NCBI RefSeq assembly: GCF_026672375.1
Contig: NZ_JAPPRA010000001.1
Location: 3,844,001 to 3,908,000, forward strand
Direction of reading: 5' to 3'
DNA: 64,000 bases
Source: Caulobacter sp. SL161
GTDB taxonomy: Bacteria; Pseudomonadota; Alphaproteobacteria; Caulobacterales; Caulobacteraceae
Shown here: piece after piece, positions 16,480 through 60,332 of the stretch
Layout: each line of letters starts with the position of its first letter
Numbering within the stretch: position 1 is the stretch's first letter
Program-made: the position numbers and the translations under genes
The notes under the pieces: model-generated
The model's input: only the letters and a program-made list of their open reading frames with translations
The model's database searches: none
What the model was told of the DNA's origin: nothing

Positions 16480-16492
16480 CGAACGGCGTTCG
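16480..16492. repeat. 13-bp palindrome CGAACGSCGTTCG, copy 1 (intergenic)
   Basis: Exact copy with central G. It is the only fully intergenic copy, 20 bases upstream of the endolysin start, which shows the element is not a by-product of coding. Confidence 0.9.
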
Positions 16493-16509
16493 CCTTGCTT
16501 AAGATCGCG

Positions 16510-16830
16510 TCAGGGATCGACGCGGCCGCGGTGGCCAATCCGGCCGTCAACCCGCCCGTCCAGCCCGTCGACGTGCTGAAGGATCCTGGGCGCGTAGGTC
16601 GTACCGAAGTAGAGCGCCAGGCCCGCCAGCATGATCACATCCCCCCAGCCGGGGGCCTGACCCTGGAACCGAGGGATCGCCGCAAGGACGAAGCCCGCAG
16701 CGAACATCGCGATCCCGATGCGCTGGAGCAGGGTTAACAGCCCTCCCCAGCCCATCAGCAACAGACAGAGCACCACGACCAGCAGGCCGCCGGCGACCAC
16801 GGAAAGGTATTGGGGCATCTGTGACAGCAT
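16510..16830 (-). CDS. Small membrane protein in lysis region (holin candidate)
   Basis: The 106-residue protein has three hydrophobic segments (YLSVVAGGLLVVVLCLLLMG, then IGIAMFAAGFVLAAIP, then VIMLAGLALYFGTTYA) and a charged C-terminal tail. Three segments and position just upstream of the endolysin fit a class I holin, but I recognise no specific holin family. It follows the 16834-17214 gene by three bases. Confidence 0.6.
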   Translation of the reverse strand: MLSQMPQYLSVVAGGLLVVVLCLLLMGWGGLLTLLQRIGIAMFAAGFVLAAIPRFQGQAPGWGDVIMLAGLALYFGTTYAPRILQHVDGLDGRVDGRIGHRGRVDP

Positions 16831-16833
16831 GGC

Positions 16834-17214
16834 TTAGCCCTCCGCCTGGTCAGAGCCGCCGATGCGCAGGCCGCCCGCCTCGAATTTGATCAGCTTGAAG
16901 GGATCGCCCGCGTACTTGGTGACGGCCTGGGTCAAGCCGCCGAAAAGCGCCATTCCCAGAAACCCGCAGGCGAATCCCACGAACGGGCCCGCCGCCGTTC
17001 CGACGCCGGGCCACTTGGCGTTCAGCAAGAATATGGGAAGCGGCGCCAGCCACGCCACGGCGGCCGCGCCCGAGGCCAGCGAGAGCGCCTTCGCCCGTAG
17101 GGTAAGCCGATCGCCGTACGCCATGGACAGCACCGCCCCCGCCGCGCCGGGCGCGTAGGGTGCGAGCTTGCTCAGGGCCGCGAGTAAGGTCGGATCCCCG
17201 GTATTGTCGGCCAT
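16834..17214 (-). CDS. Membrane protein in lysis region (holin candidate)
   Basis: The 126-residue protein has two or three hydrophobic segments (about 15-33, 45-65 and 72-96, including AAGPFVGFACGFLGMALFGG), then a soluble tail EAGGLRIGGSDQAEG. With the next gene it forms a pair of small membrane proteins before the endolysin. One may be the holin and the other an antiholin or tail-associated membrane protein. The assignment rests on position and topology only. Confidence 0.55.
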   Translation of the reverse strand: MADNTGDPTLLAALSKLAPYAPGAAGAVLSMAYGDRLTLRAKALSLASGAAAVAWLAPLPIFLLNAKWPGVGTAAGPFVGFACGFLGMALFGGLTQAVTKYAGDPFKLIKFEAGGLRIGGSDQAEG

Positions 17215-17303
17215 CGGCCAGATCTCCTGTACGCGAGAGGTGCGCTAGGCACGGTCGGCGGCTCTAGCGGCCGCCGTTGTGGATGATGGGTTCCCAGGCC
17301 GTC

Positions 17304-17711
17304 CTAGACCTCGGGCTCGGGAACCCACTTCAGGCCGCGCCCCAGTAGGACGCCGTTGGCGTGGTCGATCGGCTCGACGTCGCCGGAGGCGGAATAGATC
17401 TGCAGGTTGGCGCCCGAGATCGCGGTCATGGCGTCGGCGGCCGAGATCACCCCGTCCTCGCCCCAGACCTTGCCCTCGGGCAGCGGCGGCAGGTCGCCGC
17501 CGGCGAAGCCCTGCCAGATCGCGACAGTGGCCTGGTCGGTGCTGGCGTCGCTCGACAGATAGTGGGTGGCCGGGCTCTCGATCGTCGGAGAGGCTTCCGT
17601 CGTCAGCTTGCGGCTAAACGTGCCGGGGCCGCGTCCCATCGCTTCCCAGACCAGGTTGATGTTGGTCTGGGCGGCGGCGGTGCAGATCATGATGACAGGC
17701 AGATGAGACAT
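17304..17711 (-). CDS. Hypothetical phage protein, fibre region
   Basis: The 135-residue protein begins MSHLPVIMICTAAAQTNINL and has no domain I recognise. It is rich in Ser, Thr, Ala and Asp. It lies between the LamG-like fibre protein and the lysis genes, and ends with PEPEV. Structural or fibre-associated function is inferred from position. The 89-base gap to its left carries a 7-bp inverted repeat (17256-17276) without a T-tract. Confidence 0.6.
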   Translation of the reverse strand: MSHLPVIMICTAAAQTNINLVWEAMGRGPGTFSRKLTTEASPTIESPATHYLSSDASTDQATVAIWQGFAGGDLPPLPEGKVWGEDGVISAADAMTAISGANLQIYSASGDVEPIDHANGVLLGRGLKWVPEPEV

Positions 17712-17717
17712 AGGTCG

Positions 17718-18899
17718 TCAGGCTCCAGAGAGGATGCGGTTGCGGATGGAGAGGAACTGGGCGAGTTCGAGCGACTTCTGGGCGACGATCAGGCGCTTGA
17801 TGTGGCCGCCCCAATAGGCGCTGGCGCTGCCGTTGCTGTTGAAGCATCCAATGTATATTGGATGCGTCGATGAAACCGTGCCGCCCCTCGGCCCCGAATA
17901 GACTTCGCTATCATTGACGAAGGCGCGGAAGTTGATGACGTCCAGGCTTATGCCGATGATCGCTGACTGCCCTCTAATGTCGGGGCCGACCTGTAAACTC
18001 TCCGTGCCGCCACCTGCACGCAGCCGGCCGTCAGACCCGACCGCGAGAAAGAAGCGCTGAGAGGAACCGTTGAACGCCCCTGCCACCATCTGGGTGGCGG
18101 CCAGAGAGGCCGGAACCGTTACTTGGGCGATCAAGCAGCTGGGAGCATCAAGAGTCGCCGGCGGCAGATACGGGGTGATGAGGCGATCGTCGACAGCGTC
18201 GAACTTCGCGCCATCGAGCTGAAAGCGCGGCTTGAAGTTGGTCGTCTGCTGAACCGCCAGTGCGGTCGTTACGTCCTTAAACGAGCAGCTATAGGCCTCA
18301 CCTTGGCCATCGGTCGTGGTTCGCTCAAGGCAGATCCGGACATCGCCGGTGAAGGTCGCTGTCCAGTAAGTCGCCTGTTCGGCTGCTGAAGCGTTGAAGT
18401 TCAGGACTGTCGAAAGCGACGTATTAACCGTGTCGCGAATTAGGGCGACCATGTTTCCGGTCCCGGCGGTTCGCAGGGCGCTGGCCGCCAAGCGATAGGT
18501 CCGCCCAGCGACAACGGGCACGGTCTGCCGCAGCACGGCGTTGGAGCCAGTGCGTGTGAACAGCACTCTTCCATCCGACTGCCAGGCGACAGTCGGGTTG
18601 CCTTCAAACCAGCCCGCCAGACCCCCAGCAAAGGTTGGATTGGTCAGCATTCCGGGTTGAGCGGCGATCTGCTGCGCTAGGGTCCGTCCAGCCCATTGGG
18701 CGCTGTCCAAGGCCAAGCCGATGGGATCGTCCAGGACATTGACAGCCGTGACCCCAGCGCTGTCCTGGAACAGCCGATCGGTCTTCGTGAAGTCGTAGTC
18801 GAAGCCGCCCGCGCCGCCCGCGAAGAGCGCGGCGATCGGATCCGCCCCGCCAACGCGCGGGCGCGCGAACCCCAAACGGCGCAGACTAAGCCGGCGCAT
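17718..18899 (-). CDS. Putative carbohydrate-binding tail protein (LamG/jelly-roll-like)
   Basis: The 393-residue protein has an N-terminal DYDFTKTDRLFQDSAGVTAV region typical of phage or prophage tail proteins, a central CBM-like sandwich (about 80-200; GLAGWFEGNPTVAW, VPVVAGRTYRLAA) and a C-terminal concanavalin/LamG-like fold (about 220-390; RFFLAVGSDGRLRAG, HPIYIGCFNSNG). Two sugar-binding-type domains suggest receptor or surface-glycan binding, for example the Caulobacter S-layer polysaccharide. It follows an fibre-region gene with a one-base overlap at 18899. Confidence 0.65.
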   Translation of the reverse strand: MRRLSLRRLGFARPRVGGADPIAALFAGGAGGFDYDFTKTDRLFQDSAGVTAVNVLDDPIGLALDSAQWAGRTLAQQIAAQPGMLTNPTFAGGLAGWFEGNPTVAWQSDGRVLFTRTGSNAVLRQTVPVVAGRTYRLAASALRTAGTGNMVALIRDTVNTSLSTVLNFNASAAEQATYWTATFTGDVRICLERTTTDGQGEAYSCSFKDVTTALAVQQTTNFKPRFQLDGAKFDAVDDRLITPYLPPATLDAPSCLIAQVTVPASLAATQMVAGAFNGSSQRFFLAVGSDGRLRAGGGTESLQVGPDIRGQSAIIGISLDVINFRAFVNDSEVYSGPRGGTVSSTHPIYIGCFNSNGSASAYWGGHIKRLIVAQKSLELAQFLSIRNRILSGA

Positions 18900-19234
18900 C
18901 AGATCGTCACCAGGGACAGGGTCTCGCCCGGCTCGAGCACAGGAAACTCTTCGACATCGTCAGCCTTGAGTCGATAGCCGGCGTGAGCCGTTGCGGCGTT
19001 AGGCGAGGCGCCCTGCGCAACGCGCGCCGCGCCATCGACCGTTTTGACGATCCACATGTAGCGCACCAAGCCGTTAGGCTTGAAATCGTCAGGAGCGACA
19101 TAGCCGCCAAGCCCGACAGGCACCGCGCCGACCGTCACCTGACCGTCCCAGATTACAGATCGCTTGATCTGCACCGGCCTGCGACGCACGTCCTCAACAC
19201 CAATTTCAACTAGCATTACATGAGCTTTGGACAT
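18899..19234 (-). CDS. Hypothetical phage protein
   Basis: The 111-residue protein (MSKAHVMLVEIGVEDVRRRP) has no recognised domain. The end of the gene overlaps the start of the LamG-like gene by one base, so the two are probably co-translated. A tail or fibre accessory role is inferred from position only. Confidence 0.6.
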   Translation of the reverse strand: MSKAHVMLVEIGVEDVRRRPVQIKRSVIWDGQVTVGAVPVGLGGYVAPDDFKPNGLVRYMWIVKTVDGAARVAQGASPNAATAHAGYRLKADDVEEFPVLEPGETLSLVTI

Positions 19235-19325
19235 GGGTTTTCCTTCCGTGTTCGAGAACAGGCAGCCGCTGGAGGCCAGCGCAGCTGGTCACGGTCGAGC
19301 GCGCTGAGCTGAGTTGTGTGGGCCG

Positions 19326-19790
19326 TTAGGCCATGGCGTCGGCGGTCAGAACCAGGTCGCGGAACTCCTCGTCCGTCATGCCCAGCGCCGCCTTGGTGTT
19401 CTGGGTCGTCACGCCGGCGGTCACGAAGTTGGGCGCGCGCTCATACTCGGCCAGGGCCAGTACGTTCTGCGGATAGGGCAACGCTGCGAACGCCGCTCGT
19501 ATCGCCGCATCTATGTTGGCGTGGCCCGGCCAGGGCGTGATCAGCGCCGCCTTGAGGATCTTGTGCATCGGCACCTCGGCCGGCAGGGGCGCGACCTCCG
19601 GCGGCGGCCCATCGGTGTCGACCCACCATTCTCCCCCAGCCGCATCCAGCCGGGCGAACTGTCCAGCCTCCAAGACAGGCGGCTCGACGTCGACGAAAAT
19701 CCATCCGGGCGGGCACGGCGCGGAAAGGTCGACGACGGGCGTGGCGGGGGCGACCAGGTAGCCGCGATCATCCAGCTTGACGGTCCACAT
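19326..19790 (-). CDS. Hypothetical protein after the tail fibre (assembly-protein candidate)
   Basis: The 154-residue protein starts MWTVKLDDRGYLVAPATPVV; its ATG overlaps the TAA of the long fibre gene (19790-19792). The N-terminal DDRGYLVAP and WWVDTDGPPPE segments resemble the small partner proteins placed after fibre genes that chaperone or cap the fibre. The C-terminal half is helical. A one-mismatch copy of the 13-bp palindrome lies inside it (19487-19499). Confidence 0.6.
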   Translation of the reverse strand: MWTVKLDDRGYLVAPATPVVDLSAPCPPGWIFVDVEPPVLEAGQFARLDAAGGEWWVDTDGPPPEVAPLPAEVPMHKILKAALITPWPGHANIDAAIRAAFAALPYPQNVLALAEYERAPNFVTAGVTTQNTKAALGMTDEEFRDLVLTADAMA

Positions 19791-22700
19791 TATGCGATCC
19801 TCGTATAGGGGCGCGCTTTGAAGCTCATCGTCCCGGTGCCTTGAGCGGGAATACTTGGCACAGTGAACTGTGCAGGAACTAGCGGAGCCCAGGTAATGTG
19901 CGAATACGCATTCAGACTTGGGTAGCACGCCGCTATTATCCTACCATTAGGATGCTTGACGATATCACGCAGGGCCCCTGGCATACCCGGATTGTTAAAC
20001 AGCGCGATATGAGCCGCTGCAATATCTTCGAACCAACCGATATTATTGGTTCCATCTTGCATTATGCAGAAGAAATAATCTTCCACCTCAATAATTTTGT
20101 ATATGGAAACACTTGTATAATTGGTTCGGTTCATCGCGGCCCATGTTTGACCGTCTGCCGAGATGCGCGTGTCTGGACCAGAGCTGGGAATTATAAAGTA
20201 ACCACCAGCAAAGGTCATTTGAGAGTTGCTTGTAGCTGAGAATGACGAAAGAAGACCGTTGCTGGTCCAGGTCATTCCGTCGTCCGAGTAAAACACTTGG
20301 CCAAACGAACTCATCGCAACAAAGCGGCCATTGCCGTAGGCTACACCCGTAGGGAACGACTCGCTCCCGGGCGCTGTAGCTTTGGTCCACGCGATAGCGT
20401 TCTCAGAGTACCAAATTCCGTTTTCACCAGCGGCGACTAGGATATCGCCGTCGCTTGCGAAGCCACGAATATTGGCAGACACATTCGTGCGCTGCGTCCA
20501 CGAACCGCTATTACCAGTAGGTGACGTATAAATATTAGCGCCAGCGCCGACAACATAGAGGCCGGCGAACTTCGTTACAACAGAAGTGTACCGCGTTCCT
20601 GTAGTGTCTACGTCAATAGCCGTCCACGCTGTCGATGGCGGGTTAGATGATCTAAAAACCTTATTGACACAGTTGCCGAGCCACAGCTCTCCATCAATTT
20701 CGGAAATAAAGGGGCCTGGCTGAGATTGCCCCACGCCACCGATATCGAAATTCGCGTAAGCTGTGGCACTTGTTGCCGGAAACGTACCCATTGCTTTGGG
20801 AAACACCCCAGCGGCCTCTGGATAGGCAGACGCGAGGTACTTTGCCCCGTTCGCAGGGACGATACCCGCAGGCATAGTTGAGCGCTGACTGAAGAACGTG
20901 TCGCCGATCTCAACACCAACGCCACCGCCGTCGCCGAACTCAAATCCGCCGGCGGTCTTCTTGATCACCTGCCCCGCAGCGCCACCCGTGAGGGCGGCCA
21001 GGGCCGTCAGGATGGTGGACGAGGCCTGCTTCTCGGCTAGCGCAGCCGTGAGCCCGGCGACGTCACCAAGGCTCATCGCCAGGGCGGTCTTCAGCGCCGA
21101 CTGCGTGACCACGCCCGTGAGGCCTGCGACCGACAGCACAACGTCGGTCGGCGTGCGCATCCACTTCCAGTCGGCCAGGGTCGCCGGGCTGTCGGTAGAC
21201 AAGACATAGGTCTTGTTCTCGTCGGTGCGGATGGCGATGTCGCCGCGCTGGGCGGTCAGCGCCAGCATGGCGGCCTGCGAGCCGACCTCGAACGTGTCGT
21301 TGATCACCACGGCCGGCAGGTTCGCCGTGTCGATCACACCCGTCAGCCGCGACGCAGCGATCGGGCTGCTCGTATAGTTCAGGGCGCCGATCGCGTCCGT
21401 GATGGCCGCCTTGGTCGAGAGCGCCGTCATCGCCAGGACGTTGTCAGTTCCAGCGATGCCTTGCGCTTCGGTGGCTCGGCCCAGCGTGAAGGTCGGGTTC
21501 CCCGAGACACCGTTGCCGTTGGTGACGGCGATCCCAGCATCCGCGCTGGTGAGCGTACGCCGAGCACTGAGACCCGTGCTCGAGATCTGGACCATGAAAC
21601 CTGTCGAGCTCGTACTCGACGCGCTGGTCAGGCGCGTGACGGACGTGGAGCTCAACGCCGCCAGGCTGGTCAGGCTCGTCGCAAGCGGCTGGAAGCGCGC
21701 GTCGCCAGTCTGACGATCCAGGATCTCGTTCGCAGCCGCCGCCCCGATCGGACGGCCCTCGACCGTGCCGCCGTCAGCAGCGACCGCGACCAGCACCTTG
21801 CCGGCCATGGTCGTGCCGCCCGGCCGGGCGATGAAGTCGCCGCCGACAATCGTCTCGGCCTGGTCGCGCGCCGCCTCGGCCGCCACCCGGGCCGCCTCGG
21901 CCGCATCTCGGGCCGCTTCTGAATCGCCCTGCGCCGTCACAGCCGCAGCGCGCGCCGCCTCGGCCGCCGCCGCGTCGTCAGAGGCCTCGCCCGCCTTGAT
22001 CACGGCCGTGTCCTTGGCCGCCACCGACGCGTCGCGGGCCGCTTCTGAACCGCCCTGCGCCGTCACAGCCGCAGCGCGCGCTGCCTCGGCCGCCGCCGCG
22101 TCGTCAGAGGCCTCGCCCGCCTTGATCACGGCCGTGTCCTTGGCCGCCACCGACGCGTCGCGGGCCGCTTCTGAACCGCCCTGCGCCGTCACAGCCGCAG
22201 CGCGCGCCGCCTCGGCCGCCGCCGCATCGTCAGAGGCCTCGCCCGCCTTGATCACGGCCGTGTCCCTGGCCGCCACCGACGCGTCGCGGGCGGCTTGCGA
22301 ACCGCCCTGCGCCGTCACAGCCGCCGCGCGCGCCGCCTCGGCCGCCGCCGCGTCGCCAGCGACCTCGCCCGCCGTGATCAAAGCGGCGTCTTTGGCCGCC
22401 ACCGACGCATCGCGCGCCGCCTCGGCCGCGTCAACCAGCGGCTGGACGGCTTCTGTCACTGCGTCGACCTGAGCGTTGGCCAGCCAGGTCAGATACTCCG
22501 CCTCGGTCTTGGACGCGTTCCCAGGTTGATCCCGCCACACCTGGTAGGCCGATGCGCCTCGCACCAGCCCCAGATCTTCCCAGCCGCCAGCCGAAAGCAG
22601 GTAGCCGTGGCCGGCGAACTCGCCCGACGTCACGACATAGAAGGCGCCAAGTTCCTCACCGGTTGGCAGGTTCGAAACGAGGTCCACCGCCCCCTTGGGC

Positions 22701-22900
22701 GTGAACAGCTCGAGCGAGTCCAGGATCGTCGCGTTTTCGGTGATCAGCGCTTCGATCCGCCCGGCCAAGCCGCCGACGTCGTCATAGGCGGCCAGGGCCG
22801 TAGCCAGAGCGCCCGCCAGGGTCGATTGCGAGCCGCCCGAGTGAAAGGCCGCGATGGCCGCCGCGATAGCGTTCGCGTGCTGGGTTGGCGTCGTGGTCAT
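19790..22900 (-). CDS. Tail fibre with tandem helical repeats and beta-propeller-like tip
   Basis: The 1036-residue protein has an N-terminal attachment region, then four near-identical 42-residue repeats (about residues 155-330) rich in Ala, Asp and Glu (AARDASVAAKDTAVIKAGEA type) that would form a coiled stalk. The C-terminal part (about 700-1000) contains repeats such as TNVSANIRGFASDGDILVAA, with WTS and YSDDGMTW steps typical of propeller-type receptor-binding tips. DNA encoding the tip (about 19.8-20.9 kb) is visibly richer in A and T than its neighbours, as expected for an exchanged host-range module. Confidence 0.85.
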   Translation of the reverse strand: MTTTPTQHANAIAAAIAAFHSGGSQSTLAGALATALAAYDDVGGLAGRIEALITENATILDSLELFTPKGAVDLVSNLPTGEELGAFYVVTSGEFAGHGYLLSAGGWEDLGLVRGASAYQVWRDQPGNASKTEAEYLTWLANAQVDAVTEAVQPLVDAAEAARDASVAAKDAALITAGEVAGDAAAAEAARAAAVTAQGGSQAARDASVAARDTAVIKAGEASDDAAAAEAARAAAVTAQGGSEAARDASVAAKDTAVIKAGEASDDAAAAEAARAAAVTAQGGSEAARDASVAAKDTAVIKAGEASDDAAAAEAARAAAVTAQGDSEAARDAAEAARVAAEAARDQAETIVGGDFIARPGGTTMAGKVLVAVAADGGTVEGRPIGAAAANEILDRQTGDARFQPLATSLTSLAALSSTSVTRLTSASSTSSTGFMVQISSTGLSARRTLTSADAGIAVTNGNGVSGNPTFTLGRATEAQGIAGTDNVLAMTALSTKAAITDAIGALNYTSSPIAASRLTGVIDTANLPAVVINDTFEVGSQAAMLALTAQRGDIAIRTDENKTYVLSTDSPATLADWKWMRTPTDVVLSVAGLTGVVTQSALKTALAMSLGDVAGLTAALAEKQASSTILTALAALTGGAAGQVIKKTAGGFEFGDGGGVGVEIGDTFFSQRSTMPAGIVPANGAKYLASAYPEAAGVFPKAMGTFPATSATAYANFDIGGVGQSQPGPFISEIDGELWLGNCVNKVFRSSNPPSTAWTAIDVDTTGTRYTSVVTKFAGLYVVGAGANIYTSPTGNSGSWTQRTNVSANIRGFASDGDILVAAGENGIWYSENAIAWTKATAPGSESFPTGVAYGNGRFVAMSSFGQVFYSDDGMTWTSNGLLSSFSATSNSQMTFAGGYFIIPSSGPDTRISADGQTWAAMNRTNYTSVSIYKIIEVEDYFFCIMQDGTNNIGWFEDIAAAHIALFNNPGMPGALRDIVKHPNGRIIAACYPSLNAYSHITWAPLVPAQFTVPSIPAQGTGTMSFKARPYTRIA
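21910..22440. repeat. Four tandem 126-bp repeats within the fibre gene
   Basis: The segment GCCTTGATCACGGCC recurs at 21993, 22119 and 22245, with a diverged form at 22371, a constant step of 126 bases (42 codons). Copies are nearly identical, suggesting recent expansion by slippage or recombination. The number of units would set stalk length. Confidence 0.9.
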
Positions 22901-23175
22901 CAGACTTCGCCTTCGCCAGCCTCGTCACCGGCCGGCGCGATCGGCGCCGGCGGGATCAGCGCCAGTTGGCCTTGGATCATCTCCGCCGCCGAGTGGACGG
23001 CCGTCACCGTGCTGTTCAACGCCGAGAGGACAACCGGCGACAGGAGCGGCCCCGCCGTCATCACCTCTGCCAGCAGGGTCTCGGCCGTGTTGCTCAAGGA
23101 CGACGCGAGCACACTCAGACCGGTGATCTTGGTCAGGCGCGCGGCGTCATCCGCCGAAGTGGCGTTGTCGGACAT
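22900..23175 (-). CDS. Hypothetical protein between gpJ-like protein and fibre
   Basis: The 91-residue protein (MSDNATSADDAARLTKITGL) is predicted to be helical, with an Ala/Pro-rich acidic tail PAPIAPAGDEAGEGEV. No domain is recognised. Its stop overlaps the ATG of the fibre gene at 22900, so it is translated with it and may help attach the fibre. Confidence 0.6.
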   Translation of the reverse strand: MSDNATSADDAARLTKITGLSVLASSLSNTAETLLAEVMTAGPLLSPVVLSALNSTVTAVHSAAEMIQGQLALIPPAPIAPAGDEAGEGEV

Positions 23176-28437: not shown

Positions 28438-28438
28438 A

Positions 28439-53282: not shown

Positions 53283-53734
53283 GCCTGCCCCCCGCCGCTA
53301 ACCAGCTTCTGCGCCGCGCTTTTGAAGGCGTCAGCCGCCTCGAGCGCTTCGCGCGCGGCGACCTCACGCGCCAACCGATCGCCACCACGCTCGAGAGCCT
53401 CGAACATGGCGTTGACGGCCTCGTTACCCTCGCGGACCGCCGTCTTCATGCTGGCGGCGACCTCGGCGGCTCCGGCCGACGCCATCGAGGCGCGCTCCAG
53501 GCGCATGGCGTAGGCGGCTAGCATCGGCGGATCACCGCCACCGGCCGCGATGAACGCCGCGTCCAGACGAAAGGCGTCTTCGATCGTCGGCAGGGCGCCG
53601 GTGTCCGGATCGGACCAGTTGCGCACGGTCCGCTCGGCCTTGCCGACAGCTTCGGCCGCAACCGGATAGGTGAGGAAGCCGCCGATCGTGGCGACGGCGT
53701 CCTGAAAGCTCGCGGGGACGCGACGCTTGGTCAT
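53279..53734 (-). CDS. Phage regulator with N-terminal HTH, first leftward gene
   Basis: The 151-residue protein starts MTKRRVPASFQDAVATIGGF. The N-terminal segment LTYPVAAEAVGKAERTVRNW looks like a helix-turn-helix, followed by alanine-rich helices (about 70-150). It is the first gene of the leftward early operon and may be a CII-like or replication regulator. The frame extends upstream to 53947 but that part has no protein-like composition; ATG 53734 is preferred. Confidence 0.65.
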   Translation of the reverse strand: MTKRRVPASFQDAVATIGGFLTYPVAAEAVGKAERTVRNWSDPDTGALPTIEDAFRLDAAFIAAGGGDPPMLAAYAMRLERASMASAGAAEVAASMKTAVREGNEAVNAMFEALERGGDRLAREVAAREALEAADAFKSAAQKLVSGGGQA

Positions 53735-53931
53735 GCCCAGCTCCGAATGTTGAGGAAGGGGATCGCGCCGCTGGCGAGGCGGATGCCAGCGGCGCGCGCG
53801 ATGACGAGAAGAAGGCGGGGACCCGTCACGCGATGGCGGGGCCGGCGTTGCAAAGCAGCGCGCCGACCGCAAACGACGTGTCCGCCCGGCGAGGCTACAA
53901 GCCTGATGGCGCCTGCAACCGGAGGGACAAG
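53735..53931. promoter_or_regulatory. Divergent early promoter region (leftward early operon / rightward small genes)
   Basis: This 197-base gap separates the leftward early operon from rightward genes. It contains half-sites resembling the repressor operator (TTGCAAAG at 53848-53855 and CGCAAACG at 53868-53875), so it may be a second repressor-controlled promoter region. No clear -35/-10 pair was seen. A GGAGGG ribosome-binding site lies before the 53932 gene. Confidence 0.4.
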
Positions 53932-54171
53932 ATGAATGACCTGACAATCATCAAGGGCCAGATCGAGGCCCTTGCGCACGCCAGCGCGATCCTGCTGGGC
54001 GCTCGCATCCGACACCTGACGCCTGGCGAAGCCGCCACGGCCTGCCGTGTGTTCGCGACCCCGCTGACCGATCCGACACCAGCCGACGATCCGGCCCGGC
54101 GCGGCGTCATGCTGGACACGCTGGGCGACATCGCCGAGCGCGCCCTGATGTTGAGCAGGCCCGTCGGATGA
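53932..54171 (+). CDS. Small hypothetical phage protein
   Basis: The 79-residue helical protein (MNDLTIIKGQIEALAHASAI) has a strong GGAGGG ribosome-binding site six bases upstream. No domain is recognised. It is the first rightward gene of the early right arm. Confidence 0.6.
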   Translation: MNDLTIIKGQIEALAHASAILLGARIRHLTPGEAATACRVFATPLTDPTPADDPARRGVMLDTLGDIAERALMLSRPVG

Positions 54172-54298
54172 CCCGGCGGAAATACAGCGCGAGCGAGTTT
54201 GCCACCCACCCGTCAACTCTGGTTCGACGGCAATGTGTCGCGGCGTCGCACCATGCAAATTAACGTCCAATTCCACGGCCACGCTGTATGCGGTGGCC

Positions 54299-54514
54299 AT
54301 GATCGACGAACCGACTACACGCCCGTCCGACGAGTTTCGCGCCTTGACGATCCTGGCCTTGGCGCTTGCCGAAACCCTTGGCCAGCAAGGCCAGGGCGAG
54401 AAGTTCCTGGTGAACCTGATGCGCGTGATCGAAGACCAGCGCCCGACAGCGCCCGACGGCGACCGCGCCATCATTTGGGCCGACAAACTCTCGAACGAGT
54501 TGCTGATCAGATAG
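54299..54514 (+). CDS. Small hypothetical phage protein
   Basis: The 71-residue protein (MIDEPTTRPSDEFRALTILA) is mostly helical and acidic. An ATGCAAATT about 45 bases upstream of its ATG resembles a repressor half-site. No family is recognised. Confidence 0.5.
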   Translation: MIDEPTTRPSDEFRALTILALALAETLGQQGQGEKFLVNLMRVIEDQRPTAPDGDRAIIWADKLSNELLIR

Positions 54515-54571
54515 CCTGCGACTTGACCGCGAGCGCGCAGTGTGCAGCATCCGCAACCGTTGGGGGTGTGT

Positions 54572-54931
54572 ATGCCGCGTACGCGTTTCGATGTAGCGAA
54601 GATCTGCGACCCGACGCCGGTCGGGACAAGATCGATGGCGGTGAAGGCCAACCTGGAGGCATCGATCTCGCCCGCGAACGACCCCGTCGACTTCACGAGC
54701 GCATACATGGTGCTTGTCGACAGACTGCTCAGCGACGTAGCCGACAGCGACGCCAGCGAGTGCGCCCGCATCGTTCGAGCCATCACGCGCCGCTCGCTCA
54801 AAGAAACACCGAAAGGGCGCGCGACGCTGCGACGCGCGCCGCATTTGGCGACCGCCGAGGCGGTGTCCAGGCGCGTCTTGAAGGCGCGCTGCGAAGCGTG
54901 CCCTCGGATCTGCCAGTCTCCACTGAGATAG
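54572..54931 (+). CDS. Hypothetical basic phage protein (start uncertain)
   Basis: The frame encodes about 119 residues (MPRTRFDVAKICDPTPVGTR), with a helical centre SAYMVLVDRLLSDVADSDAS and an Arg/Ala-rich end. A later ATG at 54635 is an alternative start. Antisense frames are also open here, but they give low-complexity protein. It lies just before the convergent XRE gene. Confidence 0.4.
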   Translation: MPRTRFDVAKICDPTPVGTRSMAVKANLEASISPANDPVDFTSAYMVLVDRLLSDVADSDASECARIVRAITRRSLKETPKGRATLRRAPHLATAEAVSRRVLKARCEACPRICQSPLR

Positions 54932-54935
54932 GACA

Positions 54936-55124
54936 TCAATCCCTCTCAGCCGGAAGCCATGCGCTCGGCGGAATGCCCAGCTCGCGCTCAATCCGAACCG
55001 CCAGCTCAAGCGACGGCGTGCGCGCGCCGCTCACAAGCTGCGAAACGTAGCCCTTGGAAATGCCAAGCGACCTCAGCTTCTCGCCAAGATCCTCGCTCGA
55101 CCGGGTGAGGTTTGCGGTTTCCAT
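54936..55124 (-). CDS. Small XRE/Cro-CI-type repressor
   Basis: The 62-residue protein is essentially one helix-turn-helix: SEDLGEKLRSLGISKGYVSQ, LVSGARTPSLELAVRIEREL, then GIPPSAWLPAERD. I start at ATG 55124, which leaves the operator at 55133-55149 immediately upstream; the longer frame to 55175 would put coding over the operator. It is divergent from the XRE gene at 55219. One of the pair should be the lysogeny repressor and the other Cro-like. Confidence 0.8.
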   Translation of the reverse strand: METANLTRSSEDLGEKLRSLGISKGYVSQLVSGARTPSLELAVRIERELGIPPSAWLPAERD

Positions 55125-55132
55125 GACCGAGG

Positions 55133-55177
55133 GTTTGCATATTGCAAACTCTTTGGCAACCCGTGCGGTTTGCAACC
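55133..55177. promoter_or_regulatory. Repressor operators between the divergent XRE genes
   Basis: GTTTGCATATTGCAAAC (55133-55149) is a 7-3-7 palindrome and lies nine bases upstream of the leftward XRE start. GGTTTGCAACC (55167-55177) is a second, partial site. The same 17-mer occurs in inverse orientation at 56102-56118. A TTGGCA at 55153-55158 may be a -35 element. Confidence 0.8.
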
Positions 55178-55218
55178 TGCGTGACGACGCGAAGGTGCCC
55201 GTACGTCAAACTGCGAAC

Positions 55219-55539
55219 ATGGAAAGCGCCGACAAGCCCCTGCACCACCTTCGCGACTGGCGGAACTTCAGAGGCCTGTCTCAGGAGGACCTGGCGGAGC
55301 AGATCGGAACAACCAAGTCCGTGATCAGCCTGCTGGAGACCGGCGAAAGGCAGTTATCGCCTAAGTGGCTTTTCCGACTGGCACCGGTTCTGAAAACCAA
55401 GCCCGGCGCCATCATCGATCACAATCCCTATGACCTTCCGCGCGACGTAATCGACATCTGGCTGGAGATCGCCGAGGACCAGAGACCTCAGGCGATGAAG
55501 GTGCTCGAAACCTTCCGGAAGGCCGCCTCCGACCGCTAG
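55219..55539 (+). CDS. XRE-family repressor/Cro-like regulator
   Basis: The 106-residue protein begins MESADKPLHHLRDWRNFRGL. The helix-turn-helix is SQEDLAEQIGTTKSVISLLE, then TGERQLSPKWLFRLAPVLKT. A C-terminal segment (PRDVIDIWLEIAEDQRPQAM, about 75-95) is helical and may dimerise. No self-cleaving LexA-type peptidase domain is present, so induction would need another route. It is divergent from the 62-residue XRE gene and followed by the membrane-anchored gene. Confidence 0.85.
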   Translation: MESADKPLHHLRDWRNFRGLSQEDLAEQIGTTKSVISLLETGERQLSPKWLFRLAPVLKTKPGAIIDHNPYDLPRDVIDIWLEIAEDQRPQAMKVLETFRKAASDR

Positions 55540-55563
55540 GCGGCTACAAACAAGGCTCTCAAT

Positions 55564-56043
55564 ATGAGACCGCTGCAATTGAAAGCACGGAAAGAAGTTA
55601 TCCGAACAATTGCACTCTTGTGTTTGCTGGCGGCAACTCTCTTCTTGGCCTACGGCCGAAACGACGCCGATCAGACAGATAGCCACTTAGAAAAGGTGCT
55701 GGCTGAAAGTCCCGATCTCGCTGAACTGAGAGCTGATCGCGCCCGCAAGGAACACCAACTAGACCTGGAAGCCAGCCGAGGCATAAACGGCATCACGCTT
55801 TGCGCCGCGGGCATCAGCCGCGCGCAACGCGCTTTCGTTGGCGCTTGGGACCTTAGCTACGTTCACGGAAACGCCCCCGAGGTGGTGCGCGACGCGATGC
55901 TTCCGACCTTCAATTGCCCGGTCAAGACCAGCGAAGCAGCAGGCACCCTTACCGTAACAGCCGGCTGCATGGATCGAAGCGACTTCTATTGCGCCGAACC
56001 TCGACGCCTAGTCATTGGCAGCTCGGAGCAAAATCGCCGATAG
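55564..56043 (+). CDS. Membrane-anchored accessory protein (moron candidate)
   Basis: The 159-residue protein has one N-terminal membrane segment (TIALLCLLAATLFLAYG, about 15-31), a charged helical stalk (about 40-75) and a C-terminal domain with cysteines (CAAGISRAQ, NCPVKTSEA, GCMDRSDFYC) that could form disulfides in the periplasm. Its DNA is richer in A and T than neighbours. Placed between the repressor and the early promoter, it is probably expressed in the lysogen. Superinfection exclusion or a change of the cell surface is a reasonable guess, not shown. Confidence 0.65.
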   Translation: MRPLQLKARKEVIRTIALLCLLAATLFLAYGRNDADQTDSHLEKVLAESPDLAELRADRARKEHQLDLEASRGINGITLCAAGISRAQRAFVGAWDLSYVHGNAPEVVRDAMLPTFNCPVKTSEAAGTLTVTAGCMDRSDFYCAEPRRLVIGSSEQNRR

Positions 56044-56050
56044 CCGCTCC

Positions 56051-56119
56051 AACTGCAAACCGCCGGGTTCGCAGTTTGCAAACTTTTTGTTTGACGACAG
56101 CGTTTGCAATATGCAAACG
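56051..56119. promoter_or_regulatory. Operator cluster and probable rightward early promoter
   Basis: Three GTTTGCA-type sites lie upstream of the 56231 gene: a half-site (56051-56060), AGTTTGCAAACT (56073-56084) and GTTTGCAATATGCAAAC (56102-56118). TTGACG at 56091-56096 sits between the last two, as a -35 element covered by repressor would. The -10 element is not clear. Confidence 0.75.
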
Positions 56120-56230
56120 CTATGGTCACCCGCACCGGACGAGCGAGCACACGGGGTGTTCGTCTGGGACTGGAAGGGCGTTGAGAACCGATTTCGGTTC
56201 CCGATCGCTCCGGTGCGGTCAAAGGCCGTC

Positions 56231-56626
56231 ATGTCGTCGTCCGTTGCGCCCGAAACACCCGAACGCCGTTCGGCTGAGGTCATCTCCCTCACCGAATGGG
56301 CGGCCTCCCGTCGCCGTAGCGAGCCACCGAGCTGGGATCAGCACGCGCTCGACTTGCAACCCTATCAGCGTGACGCATTGGCGTGGCTGGAGCGCCAGGA
56401 CGCGCTGAACACCAACGACCTTTGGGCTGCGCAAGCCGCGACGGCCTATCTCGGCGACCGCATTGCCCTGCCCGCTGCGGCGATCGAGGCCGCGTTCGAC
56501 GCGAGGACCGGCCGCTTCGATCTCCCGGCCTATGTGGCCAACGCCCTTGATGGCGCGCCGGCCGTCCTGCCGCTGCCGCAACCGCCCGCCGGCATGATCG
56601 CGCGCTTGCTGCGGAGGCTGCATTGA
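56231..56626 (+). CDS. Hypothetical protein, first gene of the rightward early operon
   Basis: The 131-residue protein starts MSSSVAPETPERRSAEVISL; the rest (ALAWLERQDALNTNDLWAAQ, AAATAYLGDRIALPAAAIEA-like helices) has no domain I recognise. The upstream part of the frame overlaps the operators, so the ATG at 56231 is preferred. A palindrome copy lies at codons 11-14. The stop overlaps the next ATG (TGATG). Confidence 0.65.
   Translation: MSSSVAPETPERRSAEVISLTEWAASRRRSEPPSWDQHALDLQPYQRDALAWLERQDALNTNDLWAAQAATAYLGDRIALPAAAIEAAFDARTGRFDLPAYVANALDGAPAVLPLPQPPAGMIARLLRRLH
56260..56272. repeat. 13-bp palindrome CGAACGSCGTTCG, copy 12
   Basis: Exact copy about 30 bases inside the first gene of the rightward early operon, read as E-R-R-S. 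Confidence 0.88.
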
Positions 56627-56913
56627 TGGCCGACGACGCCCAAGCCACCGCCGACGCCGTCCGCGCCGCTTGCGCCCGCCGCGTCCGCGATCTGCTGCAA
56701 AAACGCGTCGGCGCCGGGCGCGAGGATCCTCGCCGCGCGCTGTCGGATGAGGCCAGCATCGCCAACGACTGGAAGGCCGACAGCTTCGACAGGCTCCAGC
56801 TCGTGCTCGACATCGAAGAGACCTTCGACATCGGCGTCAGTGACGAGGAGGCCGAGACGATCGACACGATCGACGCGGCGGTCACCCGCATCATGTCGGG
56901 GGCCTGGACGTGA
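56626..56913 (+). CDS. Acyl-carrier-protein-like protein
   Basis: The C-terminal 55 of 95 residues look like an acyl carrier protein. ASIANDWKADSFDRLQLVLD and IEETFDIGVSDEEAETIDTI align with the bacterial ACP core (ADSLD-LV-EE-FD-DEEAE-I-T). The phosphopantetheine serine is kept in the motif D-S-F (Ser53; usually D-S-L). An N-terminal extension of about 40 charged residues is not typical. No fatty-acid or polyketide genes are adjacent, so it may modify a protein or tap host acyl metabolism. GGAGG lies before the ATG. Confidence 0.78.
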   Translation: MADDAQATADAVRAACARRVRDLLQKRVGAGREDPRRALSDEASIANDWKADSFDRLQLVLDIEETFDIGVSDEEAETIDTIDAAVTRIMSGAWT

Positions 56914-57239
56914 ACATCACCGTGATCGCTCCGGAAAAGCGCGACGTGCTGTTCCACCTGACGCCCTTCGCCAAGGGTTGCGCCAGTGCAGCGGCCAGCG
57001 ACCGCAAGCGCCGATACCTTGTGACCAGCCGCCGCCCCGGCCAGGCCATTCACGCCTTGCTGACGCGACTGGAGCGCGCACCCGACGAGGTCGAGATCTC
57101 GCCCTGCGGCGCGACCGAAACCGCGATCCACCCGATCGGCAGGCCCCACGAGCCCTACGCCTTCGTCTGGGAGGGCCTAGCCTTCGACGAAGTGGCGACC
57201 GCCCTTTCCAATCTCAGAGCCGCAAGGACCACCCGATGA
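56910..57239 (+). CDS. Hypothetical early phage protein
   Basis: The 109-residue protein (GTG start, overlapping the upstream stop as GTGA) begins with ITVIAPEKRDVLFHLTPFAK. It has an alpha/beta feel, but no family is recognised. It is coupled to the ACP-like gene, so the two may act together. Confidence 0.65.
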   Translation: MNITVIAPEKRDVLFHLTPFAKGCASAAASDRKRRYLVTSRRPGQAIHALLTRLERAPDEVEISPCGATETAIHPIGRPHEPYAFVWEGLAFDEVATALSNLRAARTTR

Positions 57240-57427
57240 CGCGCTGGCGCGAAGGCGACGCCGCGCGCGTCGTCGACCTGACCGACCTGAAGATGCCCGG
57301 CAAGGGACGCCCGCCCTTCGCCAAGGACGACATCGTCCGGGTTCGACGCGCCTCGCCCGACGGCAAGCGTCTGGTTCTGGACACGCACACGGGCTGGTTT
57401 TCCGCCCACCGCTTCAAGCCGCTCTAG
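57236..57427 (+). CDS. Small hypothetical phage protein
   Basis: The 63-residue protein (MTRWREGDAARVVDLTDLKM) looks like a small beta-barrel: RPPFAKDDIVRVRRASPDGK then LVLDTHTGWFSAHRFKPL. It overlaps the upstream stop as ATGA. No family is assigned. Confidence 0.65.
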   Translation: MTRWREGDAARVVDLTDLKMPGKGRPPFAKDDIVRVRRASPDGKRLVLDTHTGWFSAHRFKPL

Positions 57428-57436
57428 GAGCATCCC

Positions 57437-59677
57437 ATGTCAGCCCTGACCGTCATGGCGTTGGAAAACGCCGACATTCTGCGCGCCCTTAGGTCATCGA
57501 AGTTCGAGACCGTCAGCGATCTTGCGCGCACCCTCGAACGCGACCCCAGCAATCTGCGGCGCAGCCTGACCCGGATGGCCGACGACGGCCTGCTGTCGCT
57601 GGCCAATCTGTCGCCGCTGGACGCCAGTCTGACGCTGGCGGCTCAAGCTGCTCTTGAGGCCCTGGACCGGGCCGACGGCGCCGACGTCGCCGCAGCGCCC
57701 GCTGGCTATGTCGCCCTCCGTCACGACCAGATCTTGCCCGATCCGGAGAACGCGCGCACCAGCTCGGGCCTGTCGACGTCATCCATCTTCGAAATGGCCG
57801 ACAGCCTTGCCAACCAGGGCATGCTGCAATCGCCCGCCGTGCGCCCTGCGGCCGACGGCTCGGGCTATGTGCTGGTCATGGGCGAACGTCGCTGGCGCGG
57901 CTGGGGTCTGTTGATCGAACAGGGCCGGTGGACAGCGGACAAGACGATCCTCTGCCGCCTCGACGATGGTGACGATCTGGCGCGGCTGGAGGCCGGTCTC
58001 GTCGAGAACCTGCAACGATCCGACCTCAACAATCTGGAAGCCGCCGAGGGCTTCCTGACGCTGTCGATCCGCCACAAGCGCACCGCCCAACAGATCGCCA
58101 AGACAGTCGGCTGGAACGAGCGAACCGTTCAGATCGCGCTCAAGGTCGCCAAGGAAGCCACTGAGGCCGACAAGCAGAAGTACCTCGAAAGCGAGGCCAC
58201 CTATGCACTTGCCAAGGAAACCGGCGAAGCGGGCGTCAAGCGCACCTTCACCTGGGAAGACCTTCGCGAGACGGTCAAGACGCCCAAATGGCGCCAGGTG
58301 CTGGACAAGCGTAGCCGCGTCTCGCTGCTGGTCATGGAGCTGGCCTTCAAGCAGCTCAGCGATTGCGACGGCCCCGACGGGCTGACGCGGATCTCGGTTC
58401 CGCCCGGCGGCGGCTTCTGGTCCGAGGCCGAGGATCTTGGCCTGGTCAAAGACATGCGCGTCGATCAGGCCGTGTTCGCAGGCGTGACCGACCGCGCCCG
58501 GGAATGGCTGGCCGACAACCAGTTCGACGCCGACCCCGACGCGGCGCTCAAGACGCTGCGCATCGACGCCCTGGGCTCAATGGGCGAGCGGCTGGCGTCG
58601 GACGCGGGCCGCTACGCCACCGACTTCATCAACCCGCCCAAGCCGCAACCGCCGGCGCCCGAACCCAGCCCGGAGCCGCCAACTCAGGCCTCCGACGATC
58701 GCCGCGACAGCTTCACCCGGCAGGTTCTCGCGGTCGACGGTGATGACGCTGGAGATAGCCACGAGACCGCGCCGACGATCGACGCGGCCGCAACGGCTTA
58801 TGGCGCGGCCATTGAAGAGCACGGGGCCTCTTCGCCCGAGGCCGTCGCAGGCCTAGAGGATCTGCGAGCCGCACGCGCCGCAAACAACGCGCCCTCCGCT
58901 CAAGACCCCAGCGCCCTCTACGCAGCCCTCGGCGGCAAGGCAGCCGCTCCAGCCAGCGAGGCGACGAGCGCCGTTCGCGACGAGGCGAACAATCCGGGCA
59001 ACCTGGAGGACGACGAGTTCCTGACGATCGCCGAGATCGCCCATAAGACCACGTTCGACGGCGTCGATACGCGCGGCGGCGCGATCCGTGGATGTCGCGT
59101 CTTCTCGTTCCACACCGGCCCGGGCGCCGAACTGGCCAGCCGCCTTCAGCACAAGCGCATGCTGGGCTTTGGCCAGGCCGCCAGCGGATCGGGCTTTATC
59201 GCCTATCTGACGCAGGACGCCTGGAACCTGATCGGCGAGGTTGATGATGAACGCCTCGAGGGCATGCGCCATGAGACGCTCGACACCGGCGACCTGACGG
59301 CGCTCGAGGCCTCGGGCGTCAAGTACGTGACGCCCTGGCTGGTCGATCCGGCCAAGGCCGAGGAACCGGCCCCATCCGAAGCTGCAGACTCTGACGACGG
59401 CTCGCCGTTCGCCGAAGATGAGGACGATGACGGCGAGGAAATGGACCCCCACTGGTTCGACGCCGCCGCGCACCTGGGCGGACGATGGGACTACCTGCTC
59501 GCCCTCCAGATGACCTCGCCGGCCCCGGCCGGGCTGGACGCCCCGTTCTACATCTCCGCCAAGAGCGAGGGCGAGGGCATGATCGTCGGCGAAACCCTTG
59601 CCGGGTCGGGACGCTTCAGCGACGTCAGGCTCTACCGCCGTAGCGGCAAGCTGCTGCTCCACTGGAGCGTCGCATGA
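57437..59677 (+). CDS. ParB/KorB-like protein with N-terminal HTH
   Basis: This large protein (746 residues) starts with a winged-helix segment (about 11-55: SDLARTLERDPSNLRRSLTR). A ParB N-terminal/CTPase domain follows (about 92-206), with GERRWRG (149-155, the G-x-R-R nucleotide motif) and ENLQRSDLNNLEAAEGF (190-206). Then comes the central ParB/KorB helix-turn-helix (about 215-237: TAQQIAKTVGWNERTVQIAL). The rest (about 400-746) is an acidic Ala/Pro linker and an unrecognised C-terminal domain. No ParA is nearby. It is the best candidate to bind the 13-bp palindromes. Confidence 0.87.
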   Translation: MSALTVMALENADILRALRSSKFETVSDLARTLERDPSNLRRSLTRMADDGLLSLANLSPLDASLTLAAQAALEALDRADGADVAAAPAGYVALRHDQILPDPENARTSSGLSTSSIFEMADSLANQGMLQSPAVRPAADGSGYVLVMGERRWRGWGLLIEQGRWTADKTILCRLDDGDDLARLEAGLVENLQRSDLNNLEAAEGFLTLSIRHKRTAQQIAKTVGWNERTVQIALKVAKEATEADKQKYLESEATYALAKETGEAGVKRTFTWEDLRETVKTPKWRQVLDKRSRVSLLVMELAFKQLSDCDGPDGLTRISVPPGGGFWSEAEDLGLVKDMRVDQAVFAGVTDRAREWLADNQFDADPDAALKTLRIDALGSMGERLASDAGRYATDFINPPKPQPPAPEPSPEPPTQASDDRRDSFTRQVLAVDGDDAGDSHETAPTIDAAATAYGAAIEEHGASSPEAVAGLEDLRAARAANNAPSAQDPSALYAALGGKAAAPASEATSAVRDEANNPGNLEDDEFLTIAEIAHKTTFDGVDTRGGAIRGCRVFSFHTGPGAELASRLQHKRMLGFGQAASGSGFIAYLTQDAWNLIGEVDDERLEGMRHETLDTGDLTALEASGVKYVTPWLVDPAKAEEPAPSEAADSDDGSPFAEDEDDDGEEMDPHWFDAAAHLGGRWDYLLALQMTSPAPAGLDAPFYISAKSEGEGMIVGETLAGSGRFSDVRLYRRSGKLLLHWSVA

Positions 59678-60096
59678 CCGCCGCCCCCGCAACAAGCCCG
59701 GCCGTCGATCTGATGGCCGAGGCCATCGCCGAGGCGACCTGGGCGCGCATCGAGCACATCAAACCCGGCTATCGCGCCCAACGCCGCTTCCCCACCTGGA
59801 GCAAGCTGGACGCGGCGGAACGCCAGTCCTGGCGATTGTGCGCCCGGCATGTCCTTACCGCCCTGCGGCAGGCCGGCGAGATGAACGACGGCGCGCGCCG
59901 CCTGTTGATCGCGCGCACCGTCGCCGACGCCACCTGGGAAGCCACCCGCACCGATGGCCGTCCGTCGCTGACCCCTTTCCCGACCTGGGAAACGGTCACG
60001 GCCGATCATCGCGGCGACTACATGCACATCGCGGGCGACATCATGTCCCGCGTGCGCGCCGCCAAGGCGCAAGCTCAGCAGGCGAGGGCGGCATGA
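59674..60096 (+). CDS. Hypothetical protein with an internal duplication
   Basis: The 140-residue protein contains two related halves: AEATWARIEHIKPGYRAQRR with FPTWSKL, and ADATWEATRTDGRPSLTPFP with TWETV. Each half runs ATW-x(n)-FPTW followed by a helical segment. No family is recognised. It overlaps the ParB-like gene by four bases and is co-translated. Confidence 0.65.
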   Translation: MTAAPATSPAVDLMAEAIAEATWARIEHIKPGYRAQRRFPTWSKLDAAERQSWRLCARHVLTALRQAGEMNDGARRLLIARTVADATWEATRTDGRPSLTPFPTWETVTADHRGDYMHIAGDIMSRVRAAKAQAQQARAA

Positions 60097-60332
60097 CCCA
60101 GCCCGCTCCGACCCTGGCCGACATCGTCGCCTATCACGCCACCGAGGCCGAGAACTACACCGCCAAGGCCACCGGATGGGCGCGATCGGCCGAGCTGCTC
60201 AAGACGGGCGACAGCGTCGCGAACGCCGTTCGCATCAGCCGGTTCAGCGACGCCGCCCAGCTCGCCTCCGACATCGGCGCTCGCCACGCCGAGATGGCAG
60301 CCGTGCTCAAAGCCCTGAGCGCCCGGCCATGA
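60093..60332 (+). CDS. Small hypothetical phage protein
   Basis: The 79-residue helical protein (MTQPAPTLADIVAYHATEAE) overlaps its neighbours by four bases at each end. No domain is recognised. It carries the last exact palindrome copy in the window. Confidence 0.65.
   Translation: MTQPAPTLADIVAYHATEAENYTAKATGWARSAELLKTGDSVANAVRISRFSDAAQLASDIGARHAEMAAVLKALSARP
60220..60232. repeat. 13-bp palindrome CGAACGSCGTTCG, copy 13
   Basis: Exact copy inside the 60093-60332 gene, read as N-A-V-R. Confidence 0.88.

What the first reader, a model, noticed from the sequence alone, without database searches (positions are those of the whole stretch)
16480..60232. Thirteen exact copies of the 13-bp palindrome CGAACG(G/C)CGTTCG dispersed over the prophage, none in adjacent host DNA
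Copies read by eye: 16480, 26826, 27556, 32909, 34645, 38552, 40627, 46726, 50317, 52982, 53199, 56260 and 60220 (first bases). One-mismatch forms: 19487, 42052, 58965. At about two-thirds GC a random 49 kb should hold far fewer than one. Within genes the site is read in all three frames (N-A-V-R, E-R-R-S, R-T-A-F); one copy is intergenic, and several lie within about 110 bases of a gene start. That pattern means DNA-level selection, as for operators, stoperators or partition sites. I do not know of this motif being described.
Basis: partly seen in the sequence, partly recalled or inferred. Interest (0 to 1): 0.92.

Follow-up and report, generated by a model that had tools for sequence, protein, structure and literature searches.

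The report
Orphan phage ParB's genome-wide docking sites
A virus lying dormant in a Caulobacter genome carries a short palindrome every few thousand bases that is very probably the docking site of its own ParB-type DNA clamp, and related viruses keep the arrangement with matched changes in the site, which gives a concrete handle on what partnerless ParB proteins of phages do.

Summary
In detail: 13 exact CGAACGSCGTTCG in the window, a 14th just outside it, all 14 in a 51-kb prophage at tRNA-Met, and 2 elsewhere in 4.0 Mb, about chance level. The prophage encodes a 746-aa ParB-like protein (57437-59677) and no ParA. In 21 of 29 regions with relatives of this ParB, a blind scan gave as top motif a dispersed palindrome of the same plan, with half-sites CGAACG, CGAACC, CGAGCG or CGCACG; six host windows show no such array. 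Conversely, two site clusters found by pattern proved to be prophages with a second, divergent ParB; one strain holds two prophages, each with its own ParB and site type. Below 80% flank identity, sites survive at homologous positions about ten times more often than other 13-mers, a few with both arms switched together, and spacing is more even than chance. Best explanation: loading sites of an orphan ParB clamp covering the phage genome, comparable to KorB on RK2; not operators of the CI repressor, which has its own. Binding, CTP use and purpose are inferred, not shown. Eight of 29 regions and distant ParB phages lack clear arrays.

The parts
15101..64000 (.). Prophage (continues to window-equivalent 66334, outside the window); attL 15101-15119, attR 66316-66334 at tRNA-Met
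   Evidence: 19-bp direct repeat, tRNA-Met at L016:2317-2393, integrase L016:678-2360, phage genes
57437..59677 (+). Orphan ParB-like protein, 746 aa: N-terminal winged HTH (6-55), ParB_N domain (111-193), ParB HTH (196-242), long C-terminal part without Pfam match
   Evidence: Pfam, PHROGs ParB families, PDB profile hits to Spo0J/ParB/Noc and KorB, AlphaFold model of residues 1-320 and Foldseek, motifs GERRWRG and ENLQR
16480..16492 (.). ParB-type site 1, CGAACGGCGTTCG
   Evidence: kept in G161 and G308
26826..26838 (.). site 2
   Evidence: kept in G161, not alignable in G308
27556..27568 (.). site 3
   Evidence: kept in G161, not alignable in G308
32909..32921 (.). site 4
   Evidence: kept in G161, not alignable in G308
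34645..34657 (.). site 5
   Evidence: kept in G161, not alignable in G308
38552..38564 (.). site 6
   Evidence: kept in G161, not alignable in G308
40627..40639 (.). site 7
   Evidence: exact site in G161 at the same place, alignment gapped
46726..46738 (.). site 8
   Evidence: kept in G161 and G308; the G308 copy aligns with the other site type, both arms changed, in G342
50317..50329 (.). site 9
   Evidence: one mismatch in G161, kept in G308 with the centre flipped
52982..52994 (.). site 10
   Evidence: kept in G161 and G308
53199..53211 (.). site 11
   Evidence: kept in G161, not alignable in G308
56260..56272 (.). site 12
   Evidence: one arm base differs in G161
60220..60232 (.). site 13 (site 14 lies at window-equivalent 65257, outside the window, kept in G161 and G308)
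55133..55149 (.). Immunity-type operator GTTTGCANNNTGCAAAC (others at 56067-56083, 1 mismatch, and 56102-56118)
55054..55539 (+). CI-type HTH repressor gene (ORF; true start probably internal)
   Evidence: HTH_31 and HTH_3 above cut-off
54936..55175 (-). Cro-type HTH gene
   Evidence: HTH_3 above cut-off

Best explanation
The 13-mer is the recognition and loading site of the prophage's own ParB-like protein (57437-59677). By analogy with ParB, Noc and KorB, this NTP-dependent clamp would load at each of the 14 sites, slide off and decorate the few kilobases to the next one, so that the whole phage genome becomes a ParB-coated, self-marked unit. There is no ParA in the prophage and no ParA-binding motif in the ParBs checked, so it is not an ordinary partition system. 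The parB gene lies in the rightward gene run behind CI-type operators, so it is probably made after induction or infection rather than in the quiet lysogen; the coat would then organise, protect or silence phage DNA during lytic growth. Shown here by sequence: ParB domains and motifs, the pairing of ParB with sites in both directions, matched site types, conservation at DNA level, even spacing over the group, absence of ParA. Inferred: binding itself, CTP use, sliding, timing and purpose.
For: Blind palindrome scan of 29 ParB-bearing regions: 21 of 29 at log10P -9 or below, all 21 with the same core, though in 4 of them (G017, G342, G622, G337) the sixth half-site base varies; 6 host 60-kb windows reach -4.4 to -6.6 and 13 simulated sequences -2.3 to -4.8. 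Most regions have one dominant half-site type. Converse test over 75 genomes: 9 or more CGAACG in 4 only, 8 or more CGAACC in 4 only; two clusters lay away from the ParBs found before and each contains a divergent ParB and phage head and tail genes. One strain (G116) has two prophages, 8 CGAACC and 0 CGAACG in one, 8 CGAACG and 0 CGAACC in the other. Retention in pairwise alignments: 51 of 165, 25 of 49, 24 of 27 and 50 of 52 sites at flank identity 0.55-0.70, 0.70-0.80, 0.80-0.90 and above, against 2.4%, 4.9%, 18% and 70% of control 13-mers. Positions with both arms switched to the other type: 12 rows = 6 locus pairs = 4 positions. Even spacing: Fisher P 4e-11 over 15 phages, 10 of 15 individually below 0.05. 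PDB profile: Spo0J 2.2e-42, KorB 3.5e-20. No AAA_31 ParA in the prophage; no ParA Walker motif in ORFs of the 29 regions nor in the two further prophages, while the same pattern finds the host ParA and many others; no ParA-binding motif in 29 of 29 ParBs.
Against: No binding was measured. 8 of 29 regions failed the blind scan: G367 and G512 hold only 7.5 and 10.4 kb, but G106, G590a, G590b, G502, G433 and G425 are 40-80 kb. Some of these show degenerate sites (G425 2 exact and 8 at up to one mismatch, G433 0 and 6, G502 3 and 6), while G106 has 1 and the two G590 regions 2 each. G622 mixes two types. Three distant ParB phages of Gordonia have no such sites. Of 91 viral-contig loci only 19 had this kind as best motif (among the 60 best listed). 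No recognition residue explaining the site types stood out. The 29 regions, and most of the 27 viral loci added, were chosen for ParB or for the motif, so only the converse test is free of that choice. On the ParB tree the types need 8 changes, not 3. The window's prophage alone is not significantly even. Operon position rests on reading one control region; the sigma-70 promoter scan found nothing there.
Confidence: 0.85

Rival explanations
1. KorB-like global transcription regulator: ParB loads at the sites and silences or times phage genes, alone or with a partner protein, rather than organising DNA. (This shares the ParB-site pairing with the main explanation and differs in purpose.)
For: KorB is a ParB-family protein whose clamp slides from OB to distant promoters (PMC11790492, Main section; KorB matches the family profile). 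Sites are enriched at gene edges: 48 of 132 intragenic sites lie in the first fifth of a gene against 20% of random positions, and 47 of 179 lie outside a called gene against 13% (my crude gene caller, 19 loci).
Against: Sites are spread over the genome with mean gaps of about 3-6 kb, in head, tail and lysis genes too, rather than grouped at promoters; edge enrichment may only mean weaker protein constraint there. No partner such as KorA was identified (none was searched for specifically).
Confidence: 0.35
2. Stoperators: sites at which the immunity repressor of the lysogen halts transcription, as in cluster A mycobacteriophages.
For: Dispersed, exact, often at gene edges.
Against: Operators of another kind, GTTTGCANNNTGCAAAC, lie beside the CI/Cro pair at 55133-56118. 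The 13-mer goes with ParB, while the CI ORF matched in 7 of 56 loci, the window's own included (many loci are partial). The sites are palindromes, so they carry no orientation.
Confidence: 0.04
3. True partition (centromere) sites for a plasmid-like phase, as in phage N15, with a borrowed host ParA.
For: ParB fold and palindromic sites; N15-type scattered centromere sites exist (PMC5016525 section 4); host ParAs lie at C1:547396 and on contig C2.
Against: Integrated at tRNA-Met with an integrase, no ParA of its own, no ParA-binding motif in 29 of 29 ParBs.
Confidence: 0.1
4. Sites of another phage protein genetically linked to ParB, or methyltransferase sites.
For: The phage carries two methyltransferase-domain proteins.
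Against: None of 20 other phage proteins tested recurs in all 56 loci; the methyltransferase 50330-52387 matched 7 of 56, own included (ORFs of 120 aa and more only, and many loci are 10-20 kb pieces). Two clusters found by site alone held a ParB.
Confidence: 0.05

Closest known systems
KorB and its operators OB of plasmid RK2 (IncP)
   Same: ParB-family protein; palindrome with G:C centre (TTTAGCGGCTAAA occurs in PMC11790492, search listing); OB sites scattered over the element (PMC5016525 section 4; about 12 on RK2 is recalled); OB up to more than 1 kb from promoters
   Different: Different sequence (the paper gives OB as 16 bp); the phage protein has an extra N-terminal winged HTH and a long C-terminal part; no ParA; no KorA known; sites mostly inside genes and rather even
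SopB-type sites of the plasmid-prophage N15
   Same: A phage with ParB-family protein and scattered centromere sites (PMC5016525 section 4 read; N15 papers themselves not seen)
   Different: N15 is a linear plasmid in the lysogen and has a ParA partner (recalled); here the prophage is integrated and has no ParA
Chromosomal ParB-parS and Noc
   Same: ParB_N plus HTH, GERRxR and ENLQR motifs; closest solved relatives
   Different: parS and Noc sites are even 16-bp palindromes (recalled); the host ParB is a separate gene at C1:546692
Orphan prophage ParB-CTPase-fold proteins surveyed in PMC12704722 (2025)
   Same: Prophage-borne, without ParA, fused to extra domains; roles open (passages read)
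   Different: The survey's main text does not use 'palindrom' (0 occurrences); no dispersed sites in the passages I saw
Stoperators of cluster A mycobacteriophages
   Same: Many copies over the phage genome
   Different: Bound by the immunity repressor and asymmetric (PMC9283540, title and start of abstract in listing)
Actinobacteriophage parABS (PMC4998052)
   Same: Phage-encoded ParB with sites
   Different: Includes ParA by its title; seen only as a reference

Membership tests
ParB/Noc/KorB family (protein) | ParB_N NTP-binding domain followed by ParB-type HTH | tested here: met
   PF02195 over cut-off, HTH_ParB matched below cut-off; profile hits to Spo0J 2.2e-42 and KorB 3.5e-20; Foldseek 7bm8 1.2e-10 with low whole-model TM-score 0.28
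ParB/Noc/KorB family (protein) | CTP-binding boxes GERRxR and ENxxR | tested here: met
   P0001 has GERRWRG and ENLQR; G149, R152, N191 and R194 invariant in 22 of 22 aligned
ParB/Noc/KorB family (protein) | CTP binding and clamp sliding | not testable with these tools
   needs biochemistry
ParABS partition system | adjacent ParA ATPase | tested here: not met
   no AAA_31 in the prophage; no Walker motif in ORFs of 29 regions, pattern validated on host and other ParAs
ParABS partition system | ParA-binding motif [LFI]G[KR]G[LFI] in ParB | tested here: not met
   0 of 29; motif as given, which notes that P1 ParB lacks it too
ParABS partition system | cognate ParB sites on the same replicon | tested here: met
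   by association only
KorB-OB regulon | sites upstream of target promoters, with KorA partner | tested here: inconclusive
   gene-edge enrichment; no promoter map; no KorA searched for
Stoperators | bound by the immunity repressor | tested here: inconclusive
   separate candidate repressor operators found; binding not testable
Stoperators | asymmetric site | tested here: not met
   palindrome in all 13

The most novel reading that the evidence does not exclude
A ParA-less 'phage nucleoid' system: temperate phages of Caulobacteraceae keep a rather even array of ParB loading sites along their whole genome, so that early in lytic growth a sliding ParB clamp coats every part of the phage DNA and marks it as self (against host defence, condensins or transcription, or for replication and packaging). 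The site alphabet changes with the ParB, so two such phages can share one cell without cross-loading.
Probability: 0.4. Interest if true: 0.88.

Novelty: new variant of a known kind. Interest (0 to 1): 0.77.

Why it matters
Orphan ParB proteins of prophages are many and their roles are open (PMC12704722, passages). Here one clade comes with its probable recognition sites, four site types, natural switches between types, a strain with two non-mixing pairs, and relatives in named Caulobacter and Brevundimonas strains. Binding, specificity and function become directly testable. The genome-wide, rather even layout without ParA suggests a use of ParB clamps other than segregation.

Tried and rejected
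CI-repressor operators or stoperators: disfavoured, separate operators exist. LexA box: set aside from recalled spacings, not tested by a call. Methyltransferase site: disfavoured, the enzyme is in 7 of 56 loci. Host parS: the prophage-only distribution speaks against it. Composition artefact: rejected by shuffles and host windows. Specificity residues by mutual information: no clear answer, the top columns lie outside the recognition helix and relatedness confounds it; in KorB too specificity lies outside the HTH (PMC5016525 section 4). Gordonia ParB phages: no such sites. P0001 in genome contigs: none; in phage records 26 matches over 14-25% of the query. Codon test over 90 pairs regardless of type was weak (0.80 against 0.71, P 0.009); 35 same-type pairs 0.895 against 0.726, 20 different-type pairs no effect (0.676 against 0.680). 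Rows dropped: fetched fragments G608 (3.1 kb) and G318 (5.4 kb) were not scanned; host-type ParBs of about 300 aa were not followed; G337 was scanned over 20 of 62 kb. The G161 region runs into a second prophage: 12 of its 14 sites are in the first. Six viral loci with strong unrelated palindromes were not pursued.
Full report
Observation. The genome (two contigs, 4.0 Mb) holds 16 exact places: 14 in the prophage, one at C1:709574 and one on contig C2. The prophage spans window 15101 to 66334, bounded by a 19-bp repeat at tRNA-Met, with an integrase gene at its right end. It encodes terminase, portal, head and tail genes, a NusG-like antiterminator, helicases, two methyltransferase-domain proteins and a CI/Cro-like control region.

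The candidate reader of the site. The protein at 57437-59677 has a winged HTH, a ParB NTP-binding domain and a ParB HTH. A 22-member profile finds Spo0J, ParB and Noc structures down to 2.2e-42 and KorB at 3.5e-20. The AlphaFold model of its first 320 residues (mean pLDDT 82.9, pTM 0.55) matches CTP-bound ParB and the KorB-KorA complex by Foldseek (E 1e-10 and 2e-8), with low to moderate TM-scores over the whole model. No ParA lies in the prophage.

Pairing of ParB and sites, forward test. Searches of 299 genomes of the order, 75 of the genus and 390 of the family (overlapping sets) gave relatives of this ParB, from which I scanned 29 regions, the window's included, blind for gapped palindromes. 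In 21 of 29 the top motif passes log10P -9, and all 21 share a core CG-N-N-C, three centre bases, G-N-N-CG as a palindrome: CGAACG, CGAACC, CGAGCG or CGCACG half-sites, often with G or TG outside; in 4 the sixth base varies. Six host windows reach at most -6.6 and 13 simulated sequences -4.8. Of the 8 that failed, two are short pieces, three have degenerate or few CGAACC sites and three of 40 kb or more have 1 or 2 sites. In viral contigs 91 loci were scanned: among the 60 best listed 19 had this kind as best motif, and 10 of these pass -9; six others pass -9 with unrelated palindromes; the best simulated value was -6.3. Two of the 19 carry ParBs identical to regions already counted (L192, L195).

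Converse test. I scanned 75 Caulobacter genomes for the two commonest site types without using ParB. CGAACG reached 9 or more in G000, G308, G161 and G116 and 5 or less in the other 71. CGAACC reached 8 or more in G091, G337, G116 and G141 and 5 or less in the other 71. Two clusters had no ParB found before: G116:C25 and G161:C1:3577-3614 kb. A ParB_N search found a divergent ParB inside each, the phage ParB profile recognises both at 2.2e-63 and 1.9e-72, and 10 large ORFs tested from the two clusters are terminase, portal, head or tail proteins. G116 thus holds two prophages with two ParBs and two site types that do not mix: 8 and 0, 0 and 8.

Selection on DNA. Against G308 (69% DNA identity over 12 kb aligned) all 5 window sites that fall in alignable DNA are sites there too, one with its centre flipped; against G161 (91%) 12 of 14 are kept. 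Over the pairs among 56 loci (the 29 plus 27 viral loci, most of the latter chosen for the motif or a close ParB) sites are kept at 31%, 51%, 89% and 96% in four identity bands where control 13-mers are kept at 2.4%, 4.9%, 18% and 70%; the pairs are not independent. Six locus pairs, at 4 positions, show the two types at one aligned place with both arms changed, which is what a change of reader would demand. In same-type coding pairs the site codons keep the same codon in 85 of 95 cases against 73% in the flanks. Intragenic sites lie in all three phases (29, 66, 37).

Layout. Mean gaps are about 3-6 kb and more even than random in 15 phages taken together (Fisher P 4e-11, partly relaxed site definitions, some phages related; 10 of 15 below 0.05 alone), but not significantly in the window's own prophage. 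Sites are scarcer in gene middles. Operators GTTTGCANNNTGCAAAC with at most one mismatch occur in the window only at 55133, 56067 and 56102; two further matches have 3 mismatches. parB lies in the rightward gene run behind the second group; from this I infer early lytic expression. In three Gordonia phages parB also lies in the rightward arm after the repressor, but those phages lack such sites.

Mechanism. That the ParB reads the sites is the one account I found that fits the pairing in both directions, the matched type changes and the two-prophage strain. Loading, sliding and CTP use are inferred from the family. The purpose is open: a genome-wide coat or mark fits the layout best, KorB-like regulation is the main rival, and true partition is unlikely without ParA.

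Literature. Ten searches were answered. No listed title or abstract start describes ParA-less dispersed ParB sites in phages; most subscription papers are not held. Scattered ParB-type sites as such are known from RK2 and, with ParA (recalled), from N15 (PMC5016525 section 4). PMC12704722 was read in passages, PMC11790492 in passages and its Main section, PMC5016525 in passages and section 4.

Noticed in passing
56623-56913 +: Small acyl-carrier-like protein (PP-binding above cut-off) two genes upstream of the phage parB; also in G161. Other loci were not fairly tested, as short ORFs were left out.
   Followed up: no
54936-56118: CI/Cro-like control region with 17-bp operators GTTTGCANNNTGCAAAC in two groups, reminiscent of lambda's two operators.
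   Followed up: partly
L248 12364-19078: Viral contig with a distant ParB and 8 copies of ACAGATTT-N-AAATCTGT, the strongest palindrome array of the 91 viral loci; may be another ParB site family or an operator array.
   Followed up: no
G161:C1:3577-3614 kb (L031, L032, L338, L339): Second prophage beside the relative of this one, with its own ParB and 9 sites, most with TG/CA flanks.
   Followed up: partly
63153-63596 +: ASCH-domain protein in the same rightward arm, matched in 11 of 56 loci, own included.
   Followed up: no
47796-52387 -: Protein with helicase and N6/N4 methyltransferase parts, followed by a C5 cytosine methyltransferase: a possible phage DNA modification module.
   Followed up: no
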